36,655 nt of DNA. It comes from Planctomycetota bacterium (GTDB lineage: Bacteria; Planctomycetota; UBA11346). Positions 7,176 to 15,767 of this stretch are shown in pieces. The notes under the pieces were generated by a model. The model was not told the origin of the DNA, made no database searches, and saw nothing but the letters and a program-made list of their open reading frames with translations. Position 1 is the stretch's first letter; the number at the start of each line of letters is the position of its first letter. The translations under genes and the position numbers were made by a program. Location of the stretch: positions 1 through 36,655 of the forward strand of contig REDP01000090.1 in NCBI GenBank assembly GCA_007693455.1, read 5' to 3'.

Positions 7176-8540
7176 ATGAGTGAACCAGCAGCCGCAAGTC
7201 ATGGCAATCAGACGGTACTCGTGCCTGATGTTTCGGCCTCATCATCAACAACGCCAGATCCTGCCGCCTCCATTACCTTGTGGCCTGAATATCTTGTCTC
7301 AGGGTCTCCCGCATTGGCTGGGTTATTTGATGTCGCTCTTTTGATAGTGATTGCCTTGGTCGTATTGGCTATCACCCGAGGTCTCTTACGGCCATTGCTA
7401 CTGTGGTATGTCAACCGCACCCCTGGCAAATGGAATGATATCCTTTTAACCCCATCATTTATCAATTGGATGTCATGGATTCCGGTTACTGCGGTGGGGA
7501 ATTACGGGCCACTATTTCTCGGCAATGTGGATGAGTGGATAGTAGATGTTATTCGCAATGTATCGCGCTCGCTCACCTTGATTATGGTATTGCTGGCCAT
7601 TGGCGCGCTAATGAGCGGATTTAACGCCCTCTACACCCGTCTCCCCATTGCCAAATCACGGCCGATTAAGGGCTATATTCAGATTGCCAAAATTCTCCTC
7701 TATGGCATGGGCGGACTGGTTGCTTTCTCGCTGTTGATAGACGAGTCGCCATGGAAATTTATGGCTGGATTAGGTGCTATGACGGCGGTGCTTTTGCTGA
7801 TCTTCCGCGACACAATTCTCTCTTTGGTGGCATCAATAACCTTAAGTACCAACGACATGGTACGGGTGGGCGATTGGATTGAAATGCCGCAAGCGGGGGC
7901 AGACGGTGATGTGATCGATATCAGCCTGCATACCATCAAGGTGCAAAACTGGGATCGCACCATTTCTACCATCCCCACCTATCGCTTGATGAGCGACAGT
8001 TACAAAAATTGGCGCGGGATGCAGGAGTCTGGCGGCCGACGGATTATGCGCAATCTGCGAATCGATACCAGTACCGTGCGTTTTCTTGAAGACGATGAAA
8101 TCGAGCAGTTTGCCAAGCTCCGGCTTTTACGAGACTATATTGCAGAGAAAAAGAAAGATCTTGCGGCCTGGAATGAAACCTATTGTAAGGGTGAAGATCC
8201 TGCCACTAATTCACGTCGCCTTACCAACTTGGGAACCCTGCGCGCCTACATTATCAATTACCTCAAAAGTCGCGATGACATTCACTTACCAGGTAGTGGT
8301 TTGATGTTTTTAGTGCGGCAGATGGAAGCAGACGAACACGGCGCACCAATTCAAATCTATATCTTCACCAAAACTACGGTGTGGGTGGAATACGAAGGCA
8401 TTCAAGGCGATATATTTGACCATATCTTTGCCATGTTGCCGGTCTTTGGCTTGCGCCTTTTCCAGGATCCCAGCGGCCATGATGTGCGCTCGCTCCTGCG
8501 TGCCCAGTCCACGGATGCTCCGCCAACGGCTGAATCTTAG
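7176..8540 (+). CDS. MscS-family mechanosensitive channel (YbdG/MscM-like)
   Basis: The 454-residue membrane protein has about five hydrophobic segments (roughly 48-70, 96-116, 131-152, 170-188, 194-222). The last two run into the MscS pore/beta-domain region: RDTILSLVASITLS (211-224) followed by VRVGDWIEMP (229-238), then GDVIDISLHTIKVQNWD (244-260) and TIPTY (265-269). VGDWI and the NWD...TIPT pattern are characteristic of MscS channels. The NWRGMQESGGRRI stretch after it matches the YbdG/MscM subgroup, which has a C-terminal cytoplasmic domain with inserts. It would release solutes under hypo-osmotic membrane tension. The ATG lies 9 bases after lysA, so the two are probably co-transcribed. 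The stop overlaps the stop of the convergent lipoprotein gene by four bases, with no terminator in between. Confidence 0.87.
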   Translation: MSEPAAASHGNQTVLVPDVSASSSTTPDPAASITLWPEYLVSGSPALAGLFDVALLIVIALVVLAITRGLLRPLLLWYVNRTPGKWNDILLTPSFINWMSWIPVTAVGNYGPLFLGNVDEWIVDVIRNVSRSLTLIMVLLAIGALMSGFNALYTRLPIAKSRPIKGYIQIAKILLYGMGGLVAFSLLIDESPWKFMAGLGAMTAVLLLIFRDTILSLVASITLSTNDMVRVGDWIEMPQAGADGDVIDISLHTIKVQNWDRTISTIPTYRLMSDSYKNWRGMQESGGRRIMRNLRIDTSTVRFLEDDEIEQFAKLRLLRDYIAEKKKDLAAWNETYCKGEDPATNSRRLTNLGTLRAYIINYLKSRDDIHLPGSGLMFLVRQMEADEHGAPIQIYIFTKTTVWVEYEGIQGDIFDHIFAMLPVFGLRLFQDPSGHDVRSLLRAQSTDAPPTAES

Positions 8541-9373
8541 GGCGAGGCAGGGGCCTTCTTGCTTACGGCTTCTAAGCGTTCGCGGTAGAGCGCACGCGGC
8601 TGCCGATTCCAGGCCCGAGCATACCAACTGCGCGCCTCATCGTGCTGGCCTTGGGCTTCAAACAGAGCACCGATATTGTAGAGTAGACTGGCCTCCTGGT
8701 CGCCTTCCTGATGGCGTTTCTTGAGACTTCTCAGCGCATATTGATGATGGCCTGTATCGGCCAATTGCAGAATCGAGCGGAGCTCGCGACGACGCCCATC
8801 CAAGGGGATGGTGGGACTGTGCCGGAACACCATGGAGTGCAAACGAGACAGGAGTCCCTCAAAGGCAGCTCGTTCGACCGTATCCTGATCCCCCTCAGTA
8901 ACGATGCGGCGTTCGCGACCCTGGTGCCACACCACCATATCGCGGTGGCGGGCATCGCTTAAGGGGTTGCGATAGGCCCAGAGTCGCAGATCCTCGTGAT
9001 CCGTGTCGCGGACCAGGGTGGCGGTGAGTTTTAGAGTGTCCACCAAGTGGATTTCCCGCTCCACAGTGCCAGAAGGCCCTGGTCGTCCAGATGAGGCCAT
9101 GAGTCGCGTTGGTTCTGGCAGCCATTGCAGGCTTACATCCTGTAGCCGCCATACACTGGTGGTGTTTTCCGCGCTCTCGTCATGCTCGCCGAGCCAGCCG
9201 CCAATGGCATGGGTTTCTGCCACGGCCTGCAGGCGAGTTGTTACACTATCACTGCCGATGATTGAGAGACGCGGCACATCGGGTTCGCCCTGTTGGATGG
9301 CAATGCTGTAGCTGCGTGCCGAGCAGCCGCTAGCGACGACGGCTAAAAACATACAGAGGCCAAGTGTTTTCAC
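8537..9373 (-). CDS. Lipoprotein with C-terminal TPR-like repeats, secretin operon
   Basis: The GTG at 9373 overlaps the upstream stop as GTGA and has an AGGTGG ribosome binding site, so I prefer it over the GTG at 9397 that would lie inside the previous gene. It gives a 278-residue protein with a short lipoprotein signal peptide ending in the lipobox VASGC (cysteine at residue 17). The middle contains beta-strand-like segments resembling no family I can name. The C-terminal 80 residues form two TPR-like helical hairpins (LQLADTGHHQYALRSLKKR and LYNIGALFEAQGQHDEARSWY). Being last in the secretin operon, it could serve as a pilotin-like or outer-membrane assembly factor, since TPR lipoproteins (PilF/PilW) assist secretins. 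That role is inferred from position and architecture, not from sequence identity. Confidence 0.78.
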   Translation of the reverse strand: MKTLGLCMFLAVVASGCSARSYSIAIQQGEPDVPRLSIIGSDSVTTRLQAVAETHAIGGWLGEHDESAENTTSVWRLQDVSLQWLPEPTRLMASSGRPGPSGTVEREIHLVDTLKLTATLVRDTDHEDLRLWAYRNPLSDARHRDMVVWHQGRERRIVTEGDQDTVERAAFEGLLSRLHSMVFRHSPTIPLDGRRRELRSILQLADTGHHQYALRSLKKRHQEGDQEASLLYNIGALFEAQGQHDEARSWYARAWNRQPRALYRERLEAVSKKAPASP

Positions 9374-10221
9374 TGCCCACCTTGCATATTTTGCCACATG
9401 CGCCAGGCCTGCTCGGGATTTTGTTCTACCATACGGCGGATATTGGGCGGCAGGCCTTGCAGAGCCTCTTGTACTTGTGGGTCATTGATATCAAAACCGT
9501 CAGGCAAACCCCGTTGTCCACCTTGGCGATCTTGCGGTCGTTGTGGCGTGCTGGGAGGAGAACGGCGCTGGGTGCCGTCAGTGTTCGGTATATTTTGACC
9601 AGTCGCTGTTGCCCCCGCGGCGCTATCGGCCAGCCGGTCCAAAATCATTCCAGTTTCACTGCGAATGGGAAATCGCTGCACGTGCTGGCTATGTGTGTGC
9701 AGCATCCACGCCTCATTGGCGTTGATGCGCTGGAGTCGCCATGGGCCTACTTCTTCATCCAAGGAAAGAATGTGAAAGGCGTCATCATAGGCTACGAGGG
9801 CACTGGCGCGGTGGCGATGAAGCAGTGCGCCGACTACCATAGGGCGCTGCTCGGCTTCCATGTCTTGGGCTGGAATGGTGGGTTTGCTTGGTGGAGTAAT
9901 GGTGACGGGTGGCGAAGGAGCATCAAGCCATTCTGGCTGTTCGGGAGTTTGCCCGCGCTGGGCCAGTGCCTGGCGTTCGGATTCGCGATTGTCGGGGGGA
10001 ATAAAGGGGTTGAACCATGCCCAGCTATCTTCTTCACCACCGTAATAATGGTCCATGGGTTGGATGGGAGCCAGGCGCACACGCACCTGGGTGGCAGCGC
10101 CATCATCCTGGGTTCCCGGTTCGGCAAGGGGACGAGGGGTGCGTTCGTGCAGGCTTGCCTGTCCGACTGCGGCGCCCAGTCCAACCACGCAGACCAGAAA
10201 CAGCATTGCTGAAAGATGCAT
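9370..10221 (-). CDS. Periplasmic protein in PilP/GspC-like operon position
   Basis: A 283-residue protein with an N-terminal hydrophobic helix (about 3-22, MHLSAMLFLVCVVGLGAA), either an uncleaved anchor or a signal peptide. A Pro-rich linker follows, then a compact segment around residues 130-190 (VVGALLHRHRASALVAYDD...ILSLDEEVGPWRLQRINANEAWM). This resembles the small beta domain of PilP/GspC, in which a value, a processing-like glycine and a 'W-L' motif recur, but the similarity is weak. The Gln/Pro/Arg-rich C-terminus ends in a hydrophilic helix. The ATG at 10221 has a perfect AGGAGG ribosome binding site 7 bases upstream; the frame is open a little further but that start overlaps the previous gene. 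The operon position between the PilO-like gene and the lipoprotein fits PilP/GspC, which link the inner-membrane platform to the secretin. Confidence 0.72.
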   Translation of the reverse strand: MHLSAMLFLVCVVGLGAAVGQASLHERTPRPLAEPGTQDDGAATQVRVRLAPIQPMDHYYGGEEDSWAWFNPFIPPDNRESERQALAQRGQTPEQPEWLDAPSPPVTITPPSKPTIPAQDMEAEQRPMVVGALLHRHRASALVAYDDAFHILSLDEEVGPWRLQRINANEAWMLHTHSQHVQRFPIRSETGMILDRLADSAAGATATGQNIPNTDGTQRRSPPSTPQRPQDRQGGQRGLPDGFDINDPQVQEALQGLPPNIRRMVEQNPEQAWRMWQNMQGGQ

Positions 10222-10247
10222 AACAATCCTCCTGGGAGTGCTTCTGG

Positions 10248-11204
10248 TTAGGGACGGGCGCGATGCGTCCATGAGCGCTGGTCAGCACTGCCGCGAGGGG
10301 TGCTGGGCCGGGCTTGCTGCCGTTGCTCACCACGTTCCTCATCGGAGAGGAAATGCATGCCAGCAAGATCGAAGGTGACGGTCAAGCGGCTGATGGGGTG
10401 GTCCTCAAGACGTGATCCAATGATATTAAAGCCGCGTACAATTAAAGGGCCGATAGAGCTGCGTTCCTCGGGTTCGTTGACTGGGTATCCCGCTTCTCGT
10501 ACACCACGACGGATATGTACGAGCCAGTCACGCAAGTCGCCATCTTTATTGCCCTGGGTGCGCTCGTCAGAGCTCAGCTGCACCAAGAGCCAGCTAATGC
10601 TTTCCAAGGTCCCCGTGACCTCCAGGGTAAAGGGGTATTCATGGAGGAGGGCTGGGCGGCCTGCTGGCCCGGTGGCGATGGGCGTGGTGGTAAGGGAGAC
10701 AATGCGTGCTTCGTCAATATGCCCTGGTGCCTCACTGCAGAGATACAATGCCTTGGTGACCATCTGCAGCATGTTTAACCAGCCATCGGCTTCGTGATCT
10801 GGAGGGGGACGGGTTCCCAAAAGGTTAAAGCCAAGGCGCTCATCAATGGTAAACGTTTGCGCCCGCAGTTGCAGCTCCTGGCGGAGATAGCGAATAAGAA
10901 AGGCAATATAGCCGCCACTATCGCGCCGTGGTTTGACAAAGGGGGCGATGCGCGAGACCCCTGTTTGCGCCTTGAGCTCATCGATTTGTTCTTGGGTATC
11001 AGCGATGGCTTGGCTCTGTTGAGCAACTTGCTGGGCCAGGGGGCGCGGCCCAATGCGATTTTCATAGGCACTTGCGGCACGCGTATGGGCGGCAGTGGTG
11101 GCGCCGCCATCGGAGGCAATCCACCATGCCACCAGTGCCACCACCAGCGTCACGCCAGCGGTGATCCAGGCCTTGCGTTCGCTTGTGCGCATATCTGGTT
11201 TCAT
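10248..11204 (-). CDS. PilO/GspM-like inner-membrane platform protein
   Basis: The 318-residue protein has one N-terminal transmembrane helix (about 12-30) after a short basic cytoplasmic end, then a periplasmic helix (residues 50-80) and a mixed alpha/beta C-terminal region (180-290). This bitopic layout, a coiled coil followed by a ferredoxin-like domain, is that of PilO/GspM. Residues such as YPFTLEVTGTLESISWLLVQLSS match the typical PilO pattern in which a strand is followed by a helix starting 'sywallrFL'. ATGA overlap with the PilM-type gene upstream implies coupled translation. It would pair with the PilN-like part of that protein to form the platform around the secretin. Assignment rests on topology, order and a weak motif; no closer family name is claimed. 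Confidence 0.72.
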   Translation of the reverse strand: MKPDMRTSERKAWITAGVTLVVALVAWWIASDGGATTAAHTRAASAYENRIGPRPLAQQVAQQSQAIADTQEQIDELKAQTGVSRIAPFVKPRRDSGGYIAFLIRYLRQELQLRAQTFTIDERLGFNLLGTRPPPDHEADGWLNMLQMVTKALYLCSEAPGHIDEARIVSLTTTPIATGPAGRPALLHEYPFTLEVTGTLESISWLLVQLSSDERTQGNKDGDLRDWLVHIRRGVREAGYPVNEPEERSSIGPLIVRGFNIIGSRLEDHPISRLTVTFDLAGMHFLSDEERGEQRQQARPSTPRGSADQRSWTHRARP

Positions 11205-13213
11205 GGATTGCCCTCGCTGCCATGGCGGGTGAGGGCAGTGGGTTGGAACTGGAAACGCACTTCGTATTCATGGCGATCAGGGAGATTGGGAACCTCCACG
11301 AGATCACGGTCTGAAAAAAGTGGCTCGCCATCGGGGCGACGCCAGGCCATGACTTCGTCAAGCCAATCACGAAAGGTGCGTTCATACCACTGGGCTTCGC
11401 GTCCTGCTTCCCGGCGAATCACCACGCGTACAAATAAGCGGCCACGATCGATGCTGGTGTCCACATGGTCGCTGGCGTTATTGCGGGGGGACGGCGCTGT
11501 GGCGCCGCCGCGCCCGCCGCGCCCACCGCGCCCCGTGTGCACATCCTGGTTGGCGCGGGCGGGGGTGCCGCTGACCCCTTCGGTGCGAAATTCGGCAACC
11601 CACAAGTCCTGATGGTGTTCGGCGGCCTCTTTGAGGCTGCGGATGACGTATAAGAGATCACGACCGGCAAAGATGCGGCTGGCAATGCCGCGAACGTCTT
11701 GCTGTAATGCCTGACGGCGGTTGCTGAGGCTGCGCAGATCATCTTCGTATTGCTGAAATTGCCGCTGATGATCGGTATAGCGCTGCATCTCACTATCCAG
11801 ATGGGCACGCTGCAGAAGCATATGGGTAATAAACACCACCGCCAGGATGATCATAGCAGCGCTCGTAGCATACCACCAGACAATGCGCTCCTGAAAAATC
11901 GCGGAACGTTGTTCGGATTCAGGCCGCAGATCCAGGCTTATGGCTCCGCGGCGTGCGCTTAAGGCCATGCCTAAAGCAGCAGTATAGCAGGAGGGGTGCT
12001 GCCCCAGGGCCGCGACAGCATCTTCGGCAAGAGGATGGTAGCTGCTGACCGAGGTGCGCAGTCGCCGCTGCAGAAATTCTGGCAGGCCTTGCAGTAAGGC
12101 ACCGCCACCGCAGAGCTCTATGCGCTGGAGGCTGAGGTCACGCAGTTTGAGCTGGGCACGAAACCAGTTGAGGGACGAGGATATGTGTCCCGCCAGAGCT
12201 TCGGCAGGTTGACTGAGCTCAGGCCCCAGTTGTTGGACCTCAATCATCCGCGTTTCTTGTCCAGGGGGGGGCAGAGGATCGTGGTCGAGAGCTGCTTCCA
12301 GCCAATCATCGCTGGCATCAGCTGAAGCAGTGGCCGCGGGTGGTGATGGAGATGTCTCCTGCTCATCATCCAGCCACAAGGTATCGGCTTGCGTATCGTT
12401 GTTCGTCGCAGGCTGCGTGGTTGTCGCGGCATTGTTTGCAGCGCGAGAATCCAGCCCCAGATGGCCATAGCGGCGGTCGCGTTTCATGGCTTCGGCCTGG
12501 GCCAGGGAGAGTTTGCGTTGCTCGGCCAAGACGCGGGTAAAGTCCTCACCCCCCATGGGCACTTGGCGGCAGGCAAGGAGATTATCACCCAGGCGCAGAG
12601 CCAAGCGCGTGGTGCGCGCTCCGACATCCACCACCAAGGCCATGGCCTCAGCGTCCAGAGGCTCTGGAGCAAGGGCAAAGGTATTGCCCATGGCTACCGA
12701 CTGGAGGTGGACCTGCTGGGGGCGGCAGCCGAGGGCTTTGAGTTCGCGCAGGAGTTCACGGATTTGCCCTGCCTGGGCAATCCCGCAACAGTGAATTAAT
12801 TCCTCGCCTGCCATGGGCACGACAAAACTGTCGGCGGCCAAATCACCATCATCATCGGCATGCTGCTGCAGCTCTAAGCGCAGGAGGCGCTGCAGTCGAT
12901 CCTCTGACATGGGGATGGTGCTAATATAGCGGATGAGCGCTTGGGCATCGGAGGTGCCCACCACCACCTGCCCTTTGAGTGGGCACAGTGCAGTCAGTTC
13001 GCGCAGGGCTTGGCGCAGAGGCTTGAAGGCCCCCGTATCAACGACTGGCGGGTTGTTACTATCGGGCCAGTTAGGGAAGGGATCTGGTTGTTCCTCCTGC
13101 TGTCGCTGCACGGTAGCGGCACGTACCACCTGTACCCCACCCCCGGCATAGCGCAGGGTTACCGCACGTAGGGAGCTATTGCCAATGTCTAAGCCAGTAA
13201 CAAAGCGGGCCAT
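11201..13213 (-). CDS. PilM-PilN-type fusion (actin-like ATPase plus membrane helix)
   Basis: The 670-residue protein starts with the actin-like PilM/GspL fold: phosphate-loop GLDIGNSSLRAV (7-18), a second nucleotide-binding stretch LVVDVGARTTRLAL (193-206) and GGGALLQGLPEFL (369-381). Between residues 255 and 320 there is a low-complexity insertion rich in Asn, Thr, Asp and Pro. A transmembrane helix (444-467) follows, then a coiled coil (470-505) and a periplasmic alpha/beta domain. An Arg-Gly run (561-570) splits that last domain. PilM and PilN are normally separate proteins; a single chain spanning the membrane resembles the GspL layout. Start ATG 13213 is 7 bases past the secretin stop and has AAGGGGG upstream inside the secretin end. 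The next gene overlaps as ATGA. It should recruit the cytoplasmic motor. Confidence 0.87.
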   Translation of the reverse strand: MARFVTGLDIGNSSLRAVTLRYAGGGVQVVRAATVQRQQEEQPDPFPNWPDSNNPPVVDTGAFKPLRQALRELTALCPLKGQVVVGTSDAQALIRYISTIPMSEDRLQRLLRLELQQHADDDGDLAADSFVVPMAGEELIHCCGIAQAGQIRELLRELKALGCRPQQVHLQSVAMGNTFALAPEPLDAEAMALVVDVGARTTRLALRLGDNLLACRQVPMGGEDFTRVLAEQRKLSLAQAEAMKRDRRYGHLGLDSRAANNAATTTQPATNNDTQADTLWLDDEQETSPSPPAATASADASDDWLEAALDHDPLPPPGQETRMIEVQQLGPELSQPAEALAGHISSSLNWFRAQLKLRDLSLQRIELCGGGALLQGLPEFLQRRLRTSVSSYHPLAEDAVAALGQHPSCYTAALGMALSARRGAISLDLRPESEQRSAIFQERIVWWYATSAAMIILAVVFITHMLLQRAHLDSEMQRYTDHQRQFQQYEDDLRSLSNRRQALQQDVRGIASRIFAGRDLLYVIRSLKEAAEHHQDLWVAEFRTEGVSGTPARANQDVHTGRGGRGGRGGATAPSPRNNASDHVDTSIDRGRLFVRVVIRREAGREAQWYERTFRDWLDEVMAWRRPDGEPLFSDRDLVEVPNLPDRHEYEVRFQFQPTALTRHGSEGNP

Positions 13214-13220
13214 GATGGTT

Positions 13221-15767
13221 CTAGCGGCCCCCTTGCAGGCGACTGCGGAAGTCTCCTGGCCGGCGGCGCGTTTCTCCACGTGCAGCTTCGGCGTCTTCTT
13301 GCTGCTGCAGCATTTCTTCAACGTCCTCTTGTCGCTCCCGCTCTTGTTGCCGCAATTGGCGCTGCACTTCCGGGGGTAACACTACGCGAGCGGTATCGCG
13401 AAGCCAGCGCTCTTCATCGGAAAGCTCCGCACCAGAAGGATCGATAATGCGAGCGGTAACAAAAATGAGGAGTTTACGGCGTTCGCTGCGCTTACTTTCA
13501 CTACGGAACAGGGCACCGGCAAAGGGGATGCGCGAGAGTACAGGGATGCCGCGTTGTTCCTCTTGGCTACGTTCCGAAATGAGGCCGCCCAAGACCACCG
13601 TTTGTCCATTTTTGACGTGCAGGGCAGTGGCCAAGGAGCGCGAGGCAAATTCAGGGCGCTCCACAGCATTGATGCCGGCGGCCCCAGCGGCTTGCCCTGC
13701 TTGCGGATTAAAGACTTGTTGCGAGCGAATACGAACGAGCTCGCGCACCGTAGGGAAAATAGCAAGGGTGATAATATCACTATTGCGTGCCACTGAGGGC
13801 ACTACACGCAGACGAATGCCAGAAGACTCCGTGGCAAAACGCGGAACGGGGAGGTTGATGCGATTTTGTACGATATTTCCCGTACCAGTTCCCGCGCCAT
13901 CGTCTTCAAAGCCCCCTGTGCTGACGCCGCGATTGACAATGTCTTCTACGTAGCTGATGTCTTGGGAGATATCAATAAGGCCAGTGCTGTTGGATAGCGT
14001 GAGAATTTTGGGTTCAGATAAGGTATTGGCCTTTCCGCGGCCCTCCAAAGCACGTAGGCTTGCCTCGAAGTTGGGATTCATTCCCGTACCAGCACCGATA
14101 ACCCCCACGGCCAAACCACTGCTATTGGGTCCGACTGCCGCCCCCGAGAGTCCTTGCTCCAGCATGCCTGCGGCGGCCTGGGAGAGGCCTGGATTGGCCA
14201 AAACGCCTAAGTTCGTAAAGAGGTCGCCCGAGCCAGTTGCGCCAGACTGCATACCGCCGGTGACTGTCCCTCGACTACCGGATTCAACGAAGCCGCCAAA
14301 TTTCCAATCAACTCCCAATTCGCGCAGGGCATCTTCGCTGACTTCAACAAACTTTGCCTCAATTAACACCTGCGTATTGTTGAAGTCGAGAGCATGCAGC
14401 AGACGTTTTACCTCAGCCACGGTGCTGGGAGAAGAACGTACGTACAGGGTGTTGGATTTACGCTCAACAAAGTACGTAGAGCCGCTGGGCCAGTCGACCA
14501 ACTCGGGGAGCTGTTCGAGGAAGCGCTCAAGGTCGGAAGCATCATCGCCACCATCGCCCCCAAAGGGATTGGCGCTCCCACCACCACCGCCGCCATTGGA
14601 ACTGCTGCCGGTCATGGTTTCAAATTGCGGACTCATCTGCACATTGGTAAGTCCTGATGCCAGGCGAATGATTTCGGTAATAAGGATGGGTGTAGCGCTA
14701 TTGGTGACATAGACTGTACCACCGCGATAGTTAAAGCGCACATCGACCATGTTTTGCAGGACCGAGAGTACCTCTGAAACGGGAGCGTCGGTCAAAAACA
14801 TAGTTACGGTTTGTTCGCTAATGGCCTCATCAAGAATAATATAGTTCATTCCTGCGGCGGCAAAGAGGAGACGTAGCACTTCCCCCACAGGAGCATTTTC
14901 ATAGGAGATGGCATCCAAACGGATATCCAGACGGTCGCGCACGGCTTGGCGTTCAATTTCCGCAAGGTCTTCATCAAATACCAGAACGTGTCGAGGAATG
15001 GGCGATGGCTGGCGGGGCATGGTGCCGCTTTCAATGACTTCCTTGAGCACTTCTGAGTGTCGGGTGCGACGGTCGCGCAGGGCACGACGACGTTCAATTT
15101 CCACCATGGTACGAAGGATGGCGTTCTTGAGGCTCATCACCGATTCTTCATAGGGATGGTCTTCTAAAATCGCATTACAGGCGTTTACGGCTTCGGGAAA
15201 ACGCTTTTGTTCCACCAGGACTTCGACTAAGTCCAAGCGTCGTACGATGGGGCGTTCGGCAGCGGCTTTGGCGGTGAGGTAATCGGGATCGGCGAGCACC
15301 GTCATGCGTTCATGTTGCTGGTCAATGACCATGCCACGAATACGGTGCTCATTATGGGCGACTTCGATAGCCAACTCTAAGCGTCGTGCCATTTCGTCTT
15401 CGGGATGGCGTTGGCGATAGGTGCGCAGAAGGCTGAGGGCTTCGTCAAAGCGCTTGGATGCGGCGAGGAGGCGGACTTCGCCAACCAGATCCTCTGTATC
15501 AGGAGTGAGATCAAGGGGCGGTGGCGTGGGACTGGGCTTCACCTGCTGGGCGCGCGGCATGGGAAGCGGTGCGGGCTCGGCAGGAGGCAGGGGCCAAGCA
15601 TCATCAGCAGGAGCGGGTGCTTCTACGGCTGGAGCATCGTCTGCTACTTCGCGAACAATCGGAGCAGGGGCGTCGTCTGCATCATTTGCCATTAACGAGT
15701 GGGAAAAAGTAATCGCGACCAAGGCCGCGCAACAAGGCAGAGTCAACCAAACACGTGACACAGGCAT
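13221..15767 (-). CDS. Secretin (PilQ/GspD family outer-membrane channel)
   Basis: An 848-residue protein forming a multimeric outer-membrane gate. It has a signal peptide (about 1-27), a Pro/Ala/Asp-rich linker and TPR-like helices (about 95-210). An STN/N0 domain (280-354: DAISYENAPVGEVLRLLF, FLTDAPVSEVLSVLQNMV) and an N1 domain (430-465: NTLYVRSSPSTVAEVKRLL) follow. The secretin core starts near 466 (VLIEAKFVEVSEDALRELGVDW) and includes LSEPKILTLSN, RLRVVPSVA, the hallmark VVLGGLI and GIPVLSRIPFAGALF. A charged coiled-coil tail ends the protein. A Gly/Asn-rich spacer separates N0 and N1. The ATG at 15767 opens the signal peptide; the frame is open upstream but has no better start, and the ribosome binding site is poor. 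It heads the five-gene secretion/pilus operon. Confidence 0.93.
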   Translation of the reverse strand: MPVSRVWLTLPCCAALVAITFSHSLMANDADDAPAPIVREVADDAPAVEAPAPADDAWPLPPAEPAPLPMPRAQQVKPSPTPPPLDLTPDTEDLVGEVRLLAASKRFDEALSLLRTYRQRHPEDEMARRLELAIEVAHNEHRIRGMVIDQQHERMTVLADPDYLTAKAAAERPIVRRLDLVEVLVEQKRFPEAVNACNAILEDHPYEESVMSLKNAILRTMVEIERRRALRDRRTRHSEVLKEVIESGTMPRQPSPIPRHVLVFDEDLAEIERQAVRDRLDIRLDAISYENAPVGEVLRLLFAAAGMNYIILDEAISEQTVTMFLTDAPVSEVLSVLQNMVDVRFNYRGGTVYVTNSATPILITEIIRLASGLTNVQMSPQFETMTGSSSNGGGGGGSANPFGGDGGDDASDLERFLEQLPELVDWPSGSTYFVERKSNTLYVRSSPSTVAEVKRLLHALDFNNTQVLIEAKFVEVSEDALRELGVDWKFGGFVESGSRGTVTGGMQSGATGSGDLFTNLGVLANPGLSQAAAGMLEQGLSGAAVGPNSSGLAVGVIGAGTGMNPNFEASLRALEGRGKANTLSEPKILTLSNSTGLIDISQDISYVEDIVNRGVSTGGFEDDGAGTGTGNIVQNRINLPVPRFATESSGIRLRVVPSVARNSDIITLAIFPTVRELVRIRSQQVFNPQAGQAAGAAGINAVERPEFASRSLATALHVKNGQTVVLGGLISERSQEEQRGIPVLSRIPFAGALFRSESKRSERRKLLIFVTARIIDPSGAELSDEERWLRDTARVVLPPEVQRQLRQQERERQEDVEEMLQQQEDAEAARGETRRRPGDFRSRLQGGR

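What the first reader, a model, noticed from the sequence alone, without database searches (positions are those of the whole stretch)
8537..15767. Minimal secretin platform operon without motor, core or pilin genes
Five genes in one direction encode secretin, a PilM-PilN-like fusion, PilO-like, a PilP/GspC-position protein and a TPR lipoprotein, with ATGA and GTGA overlaps. Canonical PilM, PilN, PilO, PilP and PilQ operons have PilM and PilN as separate genes and the secretin last; here the secretin is first and PilM and PilN are joined by a membrane helix. No PilB/PilT, PilC or pilin gene is within the window on either side. The set may be a type IV pilus-like or type II secretion system with unusual architecture.
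Basis: partly seen in the sequence, partly recalled or inferred. Interest (0 to 1): 0.55.

Follow-up and report, generated by a model that had tools for sequence, protein, structure and literature searches.

The report
Planctomycete pilus platform operon, secretin first
Five bacterial genes encode the envelope-spanning half of a type IV pilus-like machine (outer pore plus inner-membrane frame), while its engine, core and pilin parts lie elsewhere in the same genome; the gene set is a lineage-specific variant of a known kind of machine.

Summary
The five-gene operon is real (minus strand, 15767 to 8537). It encodes a TPR-secretin, a PilM-PilN (GspL-like) fusion, a PilO/Amuc_1100-fold protein, a protein with a PilP/GspC homology-region domain, and a TPR lipoprotein. 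The first four are a PilMNOPQ equivalent, conserved in this order in the window's Planctomycetota family; every gap among 23 genomes falls at a contig end. The fifth gene was found only in the window's genus (2 of 23). 'No motor, core or pilin' holds for the contig and for the family's other operon loci, but not for the genome, which has PilB, PilT, PilC, 16 prepilin-like places and a prepilin peptidase. The fusion is not unusual: GspL/PulL is one, and most Campylobacterota pilus clusters fuse pilM and pilN. Unusual are the secretin-first order, a well-supported clade of its own, and coexistence with a second motor-less operon carrying three tandem secretins. Canonical PilM occurs in 16 of 23 family genomes but not in this genome or its sister. 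Best reading: the alignment/secretin subcomplex of a type IV filament machine powered in trans. Which motor it uses, and whether it makes a pilus or a secretion endopilus, is not shown.

The parts
13221..15767 (-). Secretin with signal-peptide-like start, N-terminal TPR region, N0/STN-like and Secretin_N domains, C-terminal secretin domain (848 aa from the start used)
   Evidence: Pfam Secretin 123 bits, TPR_14, Secretin_N 24.0 bits (below its 28.2 cut-off); NCBIfam GspD 189.6, Amuc_1098 153.2, PilQ 152.8 bits, all under their cut-offs; best PDB sequence match a PilQ-family protein 6w6m E 5.8e-23
11201..13213 (-). PilM-PilN fusion (GspL/Amuc_1101-like): actin-like domain, LDLRPE motif at the place of the PilN N-terminal motif, membrane helix, periplasmic part
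   Evidence: PilM_2 43.6 bits over cut-off 27; Amuc_1101 93.9 and pilM 68.5 bits, under cut-offs; M. xanthus PilM E 1.2e-12; motif and helix
10248..11204 (-). PilO/GspM-position protein, Amuc_1100/PilO fold
   Evidence: AlphaFold2 model pLDDT 78.7; Amuc_1100 6kny Z 14.6 over 163 residues, PilO 2rjz Z 8.1; Foldseek E 4e-6 to Amuc_1100
9370..10272 (-). PilP/GspC-position protein: membrane helix, conserved NPFxP motif, HR domain (model residues about 140-209), helical C-terminus; start may be 10221
   Evidence: model; GspC HR 3oss_C Z 9.1, PilP 2lc4 Z 8.3 and 3jc8_Pa Z 8.2; its positional counterpart in G095 matches Pfam PilP E 5.7e-4, under cut-off
8537..9397 (-). Lipoprotein-like protein with one C-terminal TPR; candidate pilotin; start 9397 (GTG) or 9373 (GTG, the GTGA overlap); genus-restricted
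   Evidence: TPR_12 E 1.4e-4, under the curated cut-off; junction; homologue only in G001 among 23 genomes

Best explanation
The operon encodes the alignment-plus-secretin subcomplex (PilMNOPQ equivalent) of a type IV filament machine. Likely mechanism: the secretin forms the outer-membrane pore; the HR-domain protein reaches across the periplasm and docks on its N-domains; the PilO-like protein pairs with the periplasmic half of the PilM-PilN fusion; the fused cytoplasmic PilM domain contacts a PilB-type ATPase and PilC-type core supplied in trans; prepilins processed by the genome's peptidase are built into a pilus or endopilus that uses the pore. The TPR lipoprotein may act as the secretin's pilotin in this genus. 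Shown here: domain and fold identities, conservation of the set and its order, presence of motor, core, prepilin and peptidase genes elsewhere in the genome, and no canonical PilM found in this genome. Inferred: every protein contact, the use of a motor in trans (PilT-PilB-PilC on contig C257, or the lone PilB on C310 with the lone short PilC on C285), and the product (surface pilus more likely than secretion).
For: Secretin and PilM domains; PilO/Amuc_1100 and PilP/GspC folds; PilN-like motif before the membrane helix; order conserved across the 23 family genomes as far as contigs allow; secretin clade of 19 rows 99/98 and fusion clade of 11 rows 100/100. Own genome: 5 T2SSE places over the cut-off, 3 T2SSF proteins, 16 N_methyl places at E<=0.01, 14 over the cut-off, one prepilin peptidase. 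The PilT-PilB-PilC trio is 85-95% identical in the genus mate, so it is native. All 23 family genomes have T2SSE and T2SSF matches. This genome and its sister G001 have no canonical PilM match, so PilT-PilB-PilC there needs another platform.
Against: No motor or core gene adjoins the operon in any of the 25 loci examined. A second motor-less platform (C67, three secretins) could serve PilT-PilB-PilC instead. In 16 of 23 family genomes a canonical PilM exists beside this operon, so it is not simply the family's only T4P platform. No NCBIfam cut-off is reached by any of the five proteins. The HR match has weak Foldseek E-values (best 0.018) from a model of low overall confidence (pLDDT 64, pTM 0.30). 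In the genome-wide PilM_2 search the fusion's two pieces scored only 22.8 and 20.9 bits, under the cut-off. The assembly is a MAG (91% complete, 6% contaminated).
Confidence: 0.6

Rival explanations
1. It is the platform of a T2SS-like secretion system: GspD, GspL (fused), GspM and GspC, with pseudopilins and motor elsewhere, exporting proteins rather than making a surface pilus.
For: [quoted passage not shown] best NCBIfam score of the secretin is GspD; best HR match is E. coli GspC; in other Planctomycetota the fusion and PilO-like genes are followed by prepilin genes and a weakly T2SSK-like large protein.
Against: In the tree the secretin is apart from E. coli GspD and from the family's own T2SS operons with E, F and prepilin genes in G016 and G022; no pseudopilins in the locus except two prepilin-like ORFs near it in G008; best PilO-like matches are Amuc_1100 and PilO.
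Confidence: 0.2
2. It is a motor-independent envelope complex: PilMNOPQ parts exapted as a scaffold or static channel, as PilMNO homologues were for the Campylobacterota flagellar cage.
For: Never next to motor genes in 25 loci although kept family-wide; coexists with a canonical PilM in 16 of 23 genomes; precedent FcpMNO (PMC11870540, passages).
Against: No sign of lost motor-contact function; PilM domain and PilN motif are kept; motors, core and prepilins are present in the genome. A flagellar role is unlikely: 5 of 23 genomes (G010, G011, G012, G017, G019) have no FlhB match yet keep operon genes.
Confidence: 0.15

Closest known systems
Type IVa pilus platform PilM-PilN-PilO-PilP-PilQ
   Same: All five component types are present by domain, motif or fold; motor, core, prepilin and peptidase genes are elsewhere in the genome
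   Different: PilM and PilN fused; secretin first rather than last; TPR in the secretin; far under the PilQ and PilM NCBIfam cut-offs; separate secretin clade
Akkermansia Amuc_1098-Amuc_1102 pilus-like cluster (Verrucomicrobiota)
   Same: TPR-bearing secretin, PilM-like protein, Amuc_1100 fold of the PilO-like protein (Z 14.6)
   Different: Order differs: by locus number the PilO-like gene (1100) lies between secretin (1098) and PilM-like (1101); scores 153 vs 750 and 94 vs 650 bits against the two equivalog models; the C67 operon of this genome has the Amuc-like order
Type II secretion platform GspC-GspD-GspL-GspM
   Same: GspL-like fusion, GspC HR-like domain, secretin with best family score to GspD
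   Different: No GspE, GspF or pseudopilins in the locus; secretin not with the GspD clade
Flagellar cage FcpMNO of Campylobacterota
   Same: PilM/PilN/PilO homologues without adjacent pilus motor genes
   Different: Here the secretin and the PilP-like protein are kept and the set does not follow FlhB

Membership tests
T4aP platform (PilMNOPQ) | Secretin with N-domains | tested here: met
   Secretin 123 bits
T4aP platform (PilMNOPQ) | PilM actin-like domain | tested here: met
   PilM_2 43.6 bits, cut-off 27; split stretches under cut-off in the genome search
T4aP platform (PilMNOPQ) | PilN: N-terminal motif, one membrane helix, ferredoxin-like periplasmic domain | tested here: inconclusive
   Motif and helix seen; periplasmic fold not modelled
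T4aP platform (PilMNOPQ) | PilO fold | tested here: met
   Amuc_1100 Z 14.6, PilO Z 8.1
T4aP platform (PilMNOPQ) | PilP HR domain | tested here: met
   GspC Z 9.1, PilP Z 8.3 and 8.2 over 61-71 residues; Foldseek E only 0.018 or worse
T4aP platform (PilMNOPQ) | PilB, PilC, prepilin and prepilin peptidase in the genome | tested here: met
T4aP platform (PilMNOPQ) | Separate pilM and pilN, secretin last | tested here: not met
T4aP platform (PilMNOPQ) | Works with PilB/PilC to make a pilus | not testable with these tools
   needs genetics
T2SS | GspL-type fusion and GspC HR domain | tested here: met
T2SS | GspE, GspF and pseudopilins G-K with the platform genes | tested here: not met
   0 of 25 loci with ATPase or GspF-type hits
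T2SS | GspD model cut-off (TIGR02517, 351.35 bits) | tested here: not met
   189.6 bits
Amuc_1098-1102 cluster | Equivalog cut-offs of NF042912 and NF045709 | tested here: not met
   153.2 of 750 and 93.9 of 650 bits
Amuc_1098-1102 cluster | Amuc_1100 fold | tested here: met
Flagellar cage FcpMNO | Co-occurrence with flagellar genes | tested here: not met
   5 of 23 genomes keep operon genes without an FlhB match; they are MAGs 61-89% complete

The most novel reading that the evidence does not exclude
A Planctomycetota family carries two dedicated motor-less secretin platforms (this operon and a three-secretin operon), besides a canonical T4P set in most members; they either share one PilT-PilB-PilC motor in trans or work as motor-independent trans-envelope complexes exapted from pili.
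Probability: 0.2. Interest if true: 0.65.

Novelty: new variant of a known kind. Interest (0 to 1): 0.35.

Why it matters
Pilus and T2SS platforms are usually described one per motor. A lineage in which several complete platforms are kept without adjacent motors makes motor sharing, or motor-independent secretin complexes, testable, and adds a Planctomycetota branch related in parts to the Amuc_1100 pilus-like cluster of Akkermansia.

Tried and rejected
A conserved-stretch search with 15 fusion proteins failed; with 8 it gave 10 named records: eight titled Planctomycetota or Planctomycetales, two titled Candidatus Kuenenia stuttgartiensis.

Considered and rejected: a truncated pilus locus at a contig end (the operon lies mid-contig and is conserved); flagellar cage (FlhB does not track it); the last two genes being unrelated families (the fourth has a PilP/GspC HR fold; the fifth is only a generic TPR lipoprotein-like protein); contamination as the source of the platform (the genus mate has it). 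Contigs C54 (GspE-F-C-D) and C310 could still be contaminants: no C54-type secretin was found in G001.

Weak points kept: the secretin of G095 (same gene order, another family) is a long branch and was not placed with the window clade in the tree, though its score against the window-type secretin model, 242 bits, is well above the next row that is not a family operon, 127 bits. The PilO-like model matched 27 genomes outside the family among the 392 searched (E 2e-13 to 4e-6); the context of 14 of these 27 was read, and in the two contexts checked by Pfam a TPR protein, not a secretin, followed. The prepilin pattern scan is a simple motif and can miss pilins. The viral fold library, Rfam, PADLOC and PHROGs were not used.
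Full report
What is there. Five ORFs run on the minus strand from 15767 to 8537. The fusion gene starts at 13213, not at the ORF's first TTG: all 15 aligned sequences share the methionine there. The window is the whole 36,655-base contig C4 of a 3.63-Mb, 334-contig genome, 91% complete and 6% contaminated. Named relatives are mostly titled Planctomycetota MAGs.

What the proteins are. The secretin has Pfam Secretin (123 bits), TPR and Secretin_N matches; its best NCBIfam scores are GspD 189.6, Amuc_1098 153.2 and PilQ 152.8 bits, all well under their cut-offs. The second protein has a PilM domain (PilM_2 43.6 bits, cut-off 27) and matches solved PilM sequences (E 1.2e-12). Before its strongest membrane helix it carries LDLRPE, in the place where E. 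coli HofN has INFLPWR and the C67 paralogue VNLLPSS; D464 of that motif is invariant and L465 and P467 nearly so among 15 sequences. This fits PilM fused to PilN. The third protein has no Pfam match; its AlphaFold2 model (9 sequences, pLDDT 78.7) matches Amuc_1100 (Foldseek E 4e-6; Z 14.6 over 163 residues) and PilO (Z 8.1). The fourth has no Pfam match; its model is poor overall (pLDDT 64, pTM 0.30), but residues about 140-209 are confident and match GspC HR (Z 9.1) and PilP (Z 8.3, 8.2), with unrelated folds mostly at Z about 5 or less (7muc_AF, a Dot/Icm chain, has 6.0). Foldseek E-values for it are weak (0.018 at best). The protein at the same place in G095, another family with the same gene order, matches Pfam PilP at E 5.7e-4, under the cut-off. 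The fifth is a lipoprotein-like protein with weak TPR matches in one place. TPR lipoproteins serve as pilotins of T4aP secretins (PMC10653833, passages); that this one does so is inference.

Conservation. Models of the four proteins were run on 25 loci of the 23 genomes of the family. Secretin and fusion adjoin in 21 of 23, fusion and PilO-like in 20 of 23, PilO-like and PilP-like in 20 of 23; each miss is at a contig end. A gcvT gene lies divergently beside the secretin in 16 of 23. G015 and G021 have two PilP-like copies. The TPR lipoprotein is in 2 of 23. The window-type secretins form a clade of 19 rows (99/98) apart from the C67 secretins and from the clade with E. coli GspD and the family's T2SS secretins; the fusion proteins given to the tree form a clade of 11 rows (100/100).

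Where the rest of the machine is. In no locus did PilB, PilT, PilC, GspE or GspF queries hit at 1e-8; only G008 had prepilin-like ORFs nearby. In the own genome, T2SSE gives six places, five over the cut-off: C257 twice (PilB and PilT), C310, C54 and C21. T2SSF gives six stretches in three proteins: C257, C54 and C285. N_methyl gives 16 places, 14 over the cut-off. Peptidase_A24 gives one. The trio PilT-PilB-PilC stands without a secretin in the own genome and in the stretches read from G001 and G009; PilT and PilC were also read in the G005 stretch, with a PilB match between them. Own PilT, PilB and PilC are 95.5, 86.9 and 84.7% identical to those of G001, where PilT is cut by the contig end. 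All 23 family genomes have T2SSE and T2SSF matches.

Other platforms. Canonical PilM (168-196 bits) is present in 16 of 23 family genomes and was not found in G000, G001, G010, G011, G017, G018 and G020, all incomplete assemblies. G005 has a PilM (185 bits) and, on another contig, PilN, PilO, PilP-like and PilQ genes in a row (the PilN and PilP names rest on the INLLP motif, position and reading of the sequence, as Pfam gave no clear match). The own genome instead has contig C67: PilM-PilN (Amuc_1101 model 194 bits), a PilO-position protein, a 563-aa protein and three secretins in tandem. Three secretins close together on one contig occur in 15 of 23 genomes (counted by eye), and the three form three ortholog groups in the tree, so the triplication is old.

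What is known. [quoted passage not shown] In Campylobacterota most T4P clusters have pilM and pilN fused, and PilMNO homologues were exapted for the flagellar motor (PMC11870540, passages). The Akkermansia cluster Amuc_1098 to 1102 has a TPR-containing secretin found in the outer membrane (PMC4960237, PMC5332112, passages). In the type IV filament survey, systems may be encoded in several loci, and PilMNOP homologues are noted for T4aP, MSH and T2SS (PMC6668835, passages). Searches for Planctomycetota pilus or T2SS platforms listed no title or abstract start describing this operon; apart from the papers named above, only listings were seen.

Reading. The operon is a PilMNOPQ-equivalent platform of the type IV filament superfamily. 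Since this genome and its sister show no canonical PilM but keep PilT-PilB-PilC, a role with that motor is the simplest account, in competition with the C67 operon. A secretion role and a motor-independent role are not excluded. The flagellar role is disfavoured: FlhB is not found in 5 of 23 genomes that keep operon genes.

Noticed in passing
L050:5099-17530 (G000 contig C67): Operon of PilM-PilN fusion, PilO-position protein, 563-aa protein and three tandem secretins (842, 815, 908 aa); all three on one contig in 15 of 23 family genomes (by eye). Could form mixed or three separate pores.
   Followed up: partly
L144:5154-18001, L146, L148, L149 and others: In other Planctomycetota, FHA protein, PilM-PilN fusion, PilO-like, large TPR protein, prepilin genes and a large protein weakly T2SSK-like (checked by Pfam in L144 only) lie in a row; no secretin among the L144 proteins checked.
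   Followed up: partly
window:28161-29426: Protein joining TPR repeats to two RNA polymerase alpha C-terminal domain stretches (Pfam 103.5 bits).
   Followed up: no
window:23819-26910: Two adjoining minus-strand ORFs (604 and 426 aa) with no significant Pfam family.
   Followed up: no
L052:2723-3703 (G000 contig C285): Lone short PilC-like protein (326 aa); similar short T2SSF proteins (about 320-356 aa open frames) occur in many family genomes. Candidate core for a platform without one.
   Followed up: partly
window:10248-10260: The PilO-like protein ends in Ala-Arg-Pro in 7 of 9 aligned sequences although the tail before it is variable.
   Followed up: no
window:1942-4564: DUF790 protein next to an XPB-like helicase.
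   Followed up: no
window:35448-36545: FlhB (415.6 bits) at the contig end, next to a gene that reads like methionyl-tRNA synthetase (name from reading the sequence, not searched).
   Followed up: partly
L048:1195-4051 (G000 contig C257): A third PilM-PilN-type protein (538 aa) followed by a DnaA-like ORF (name from reading the sequence), facing the PilC-PilB-PilT genes; the related protein of G005 is on another contig than its PilB.
   Followed up: partly
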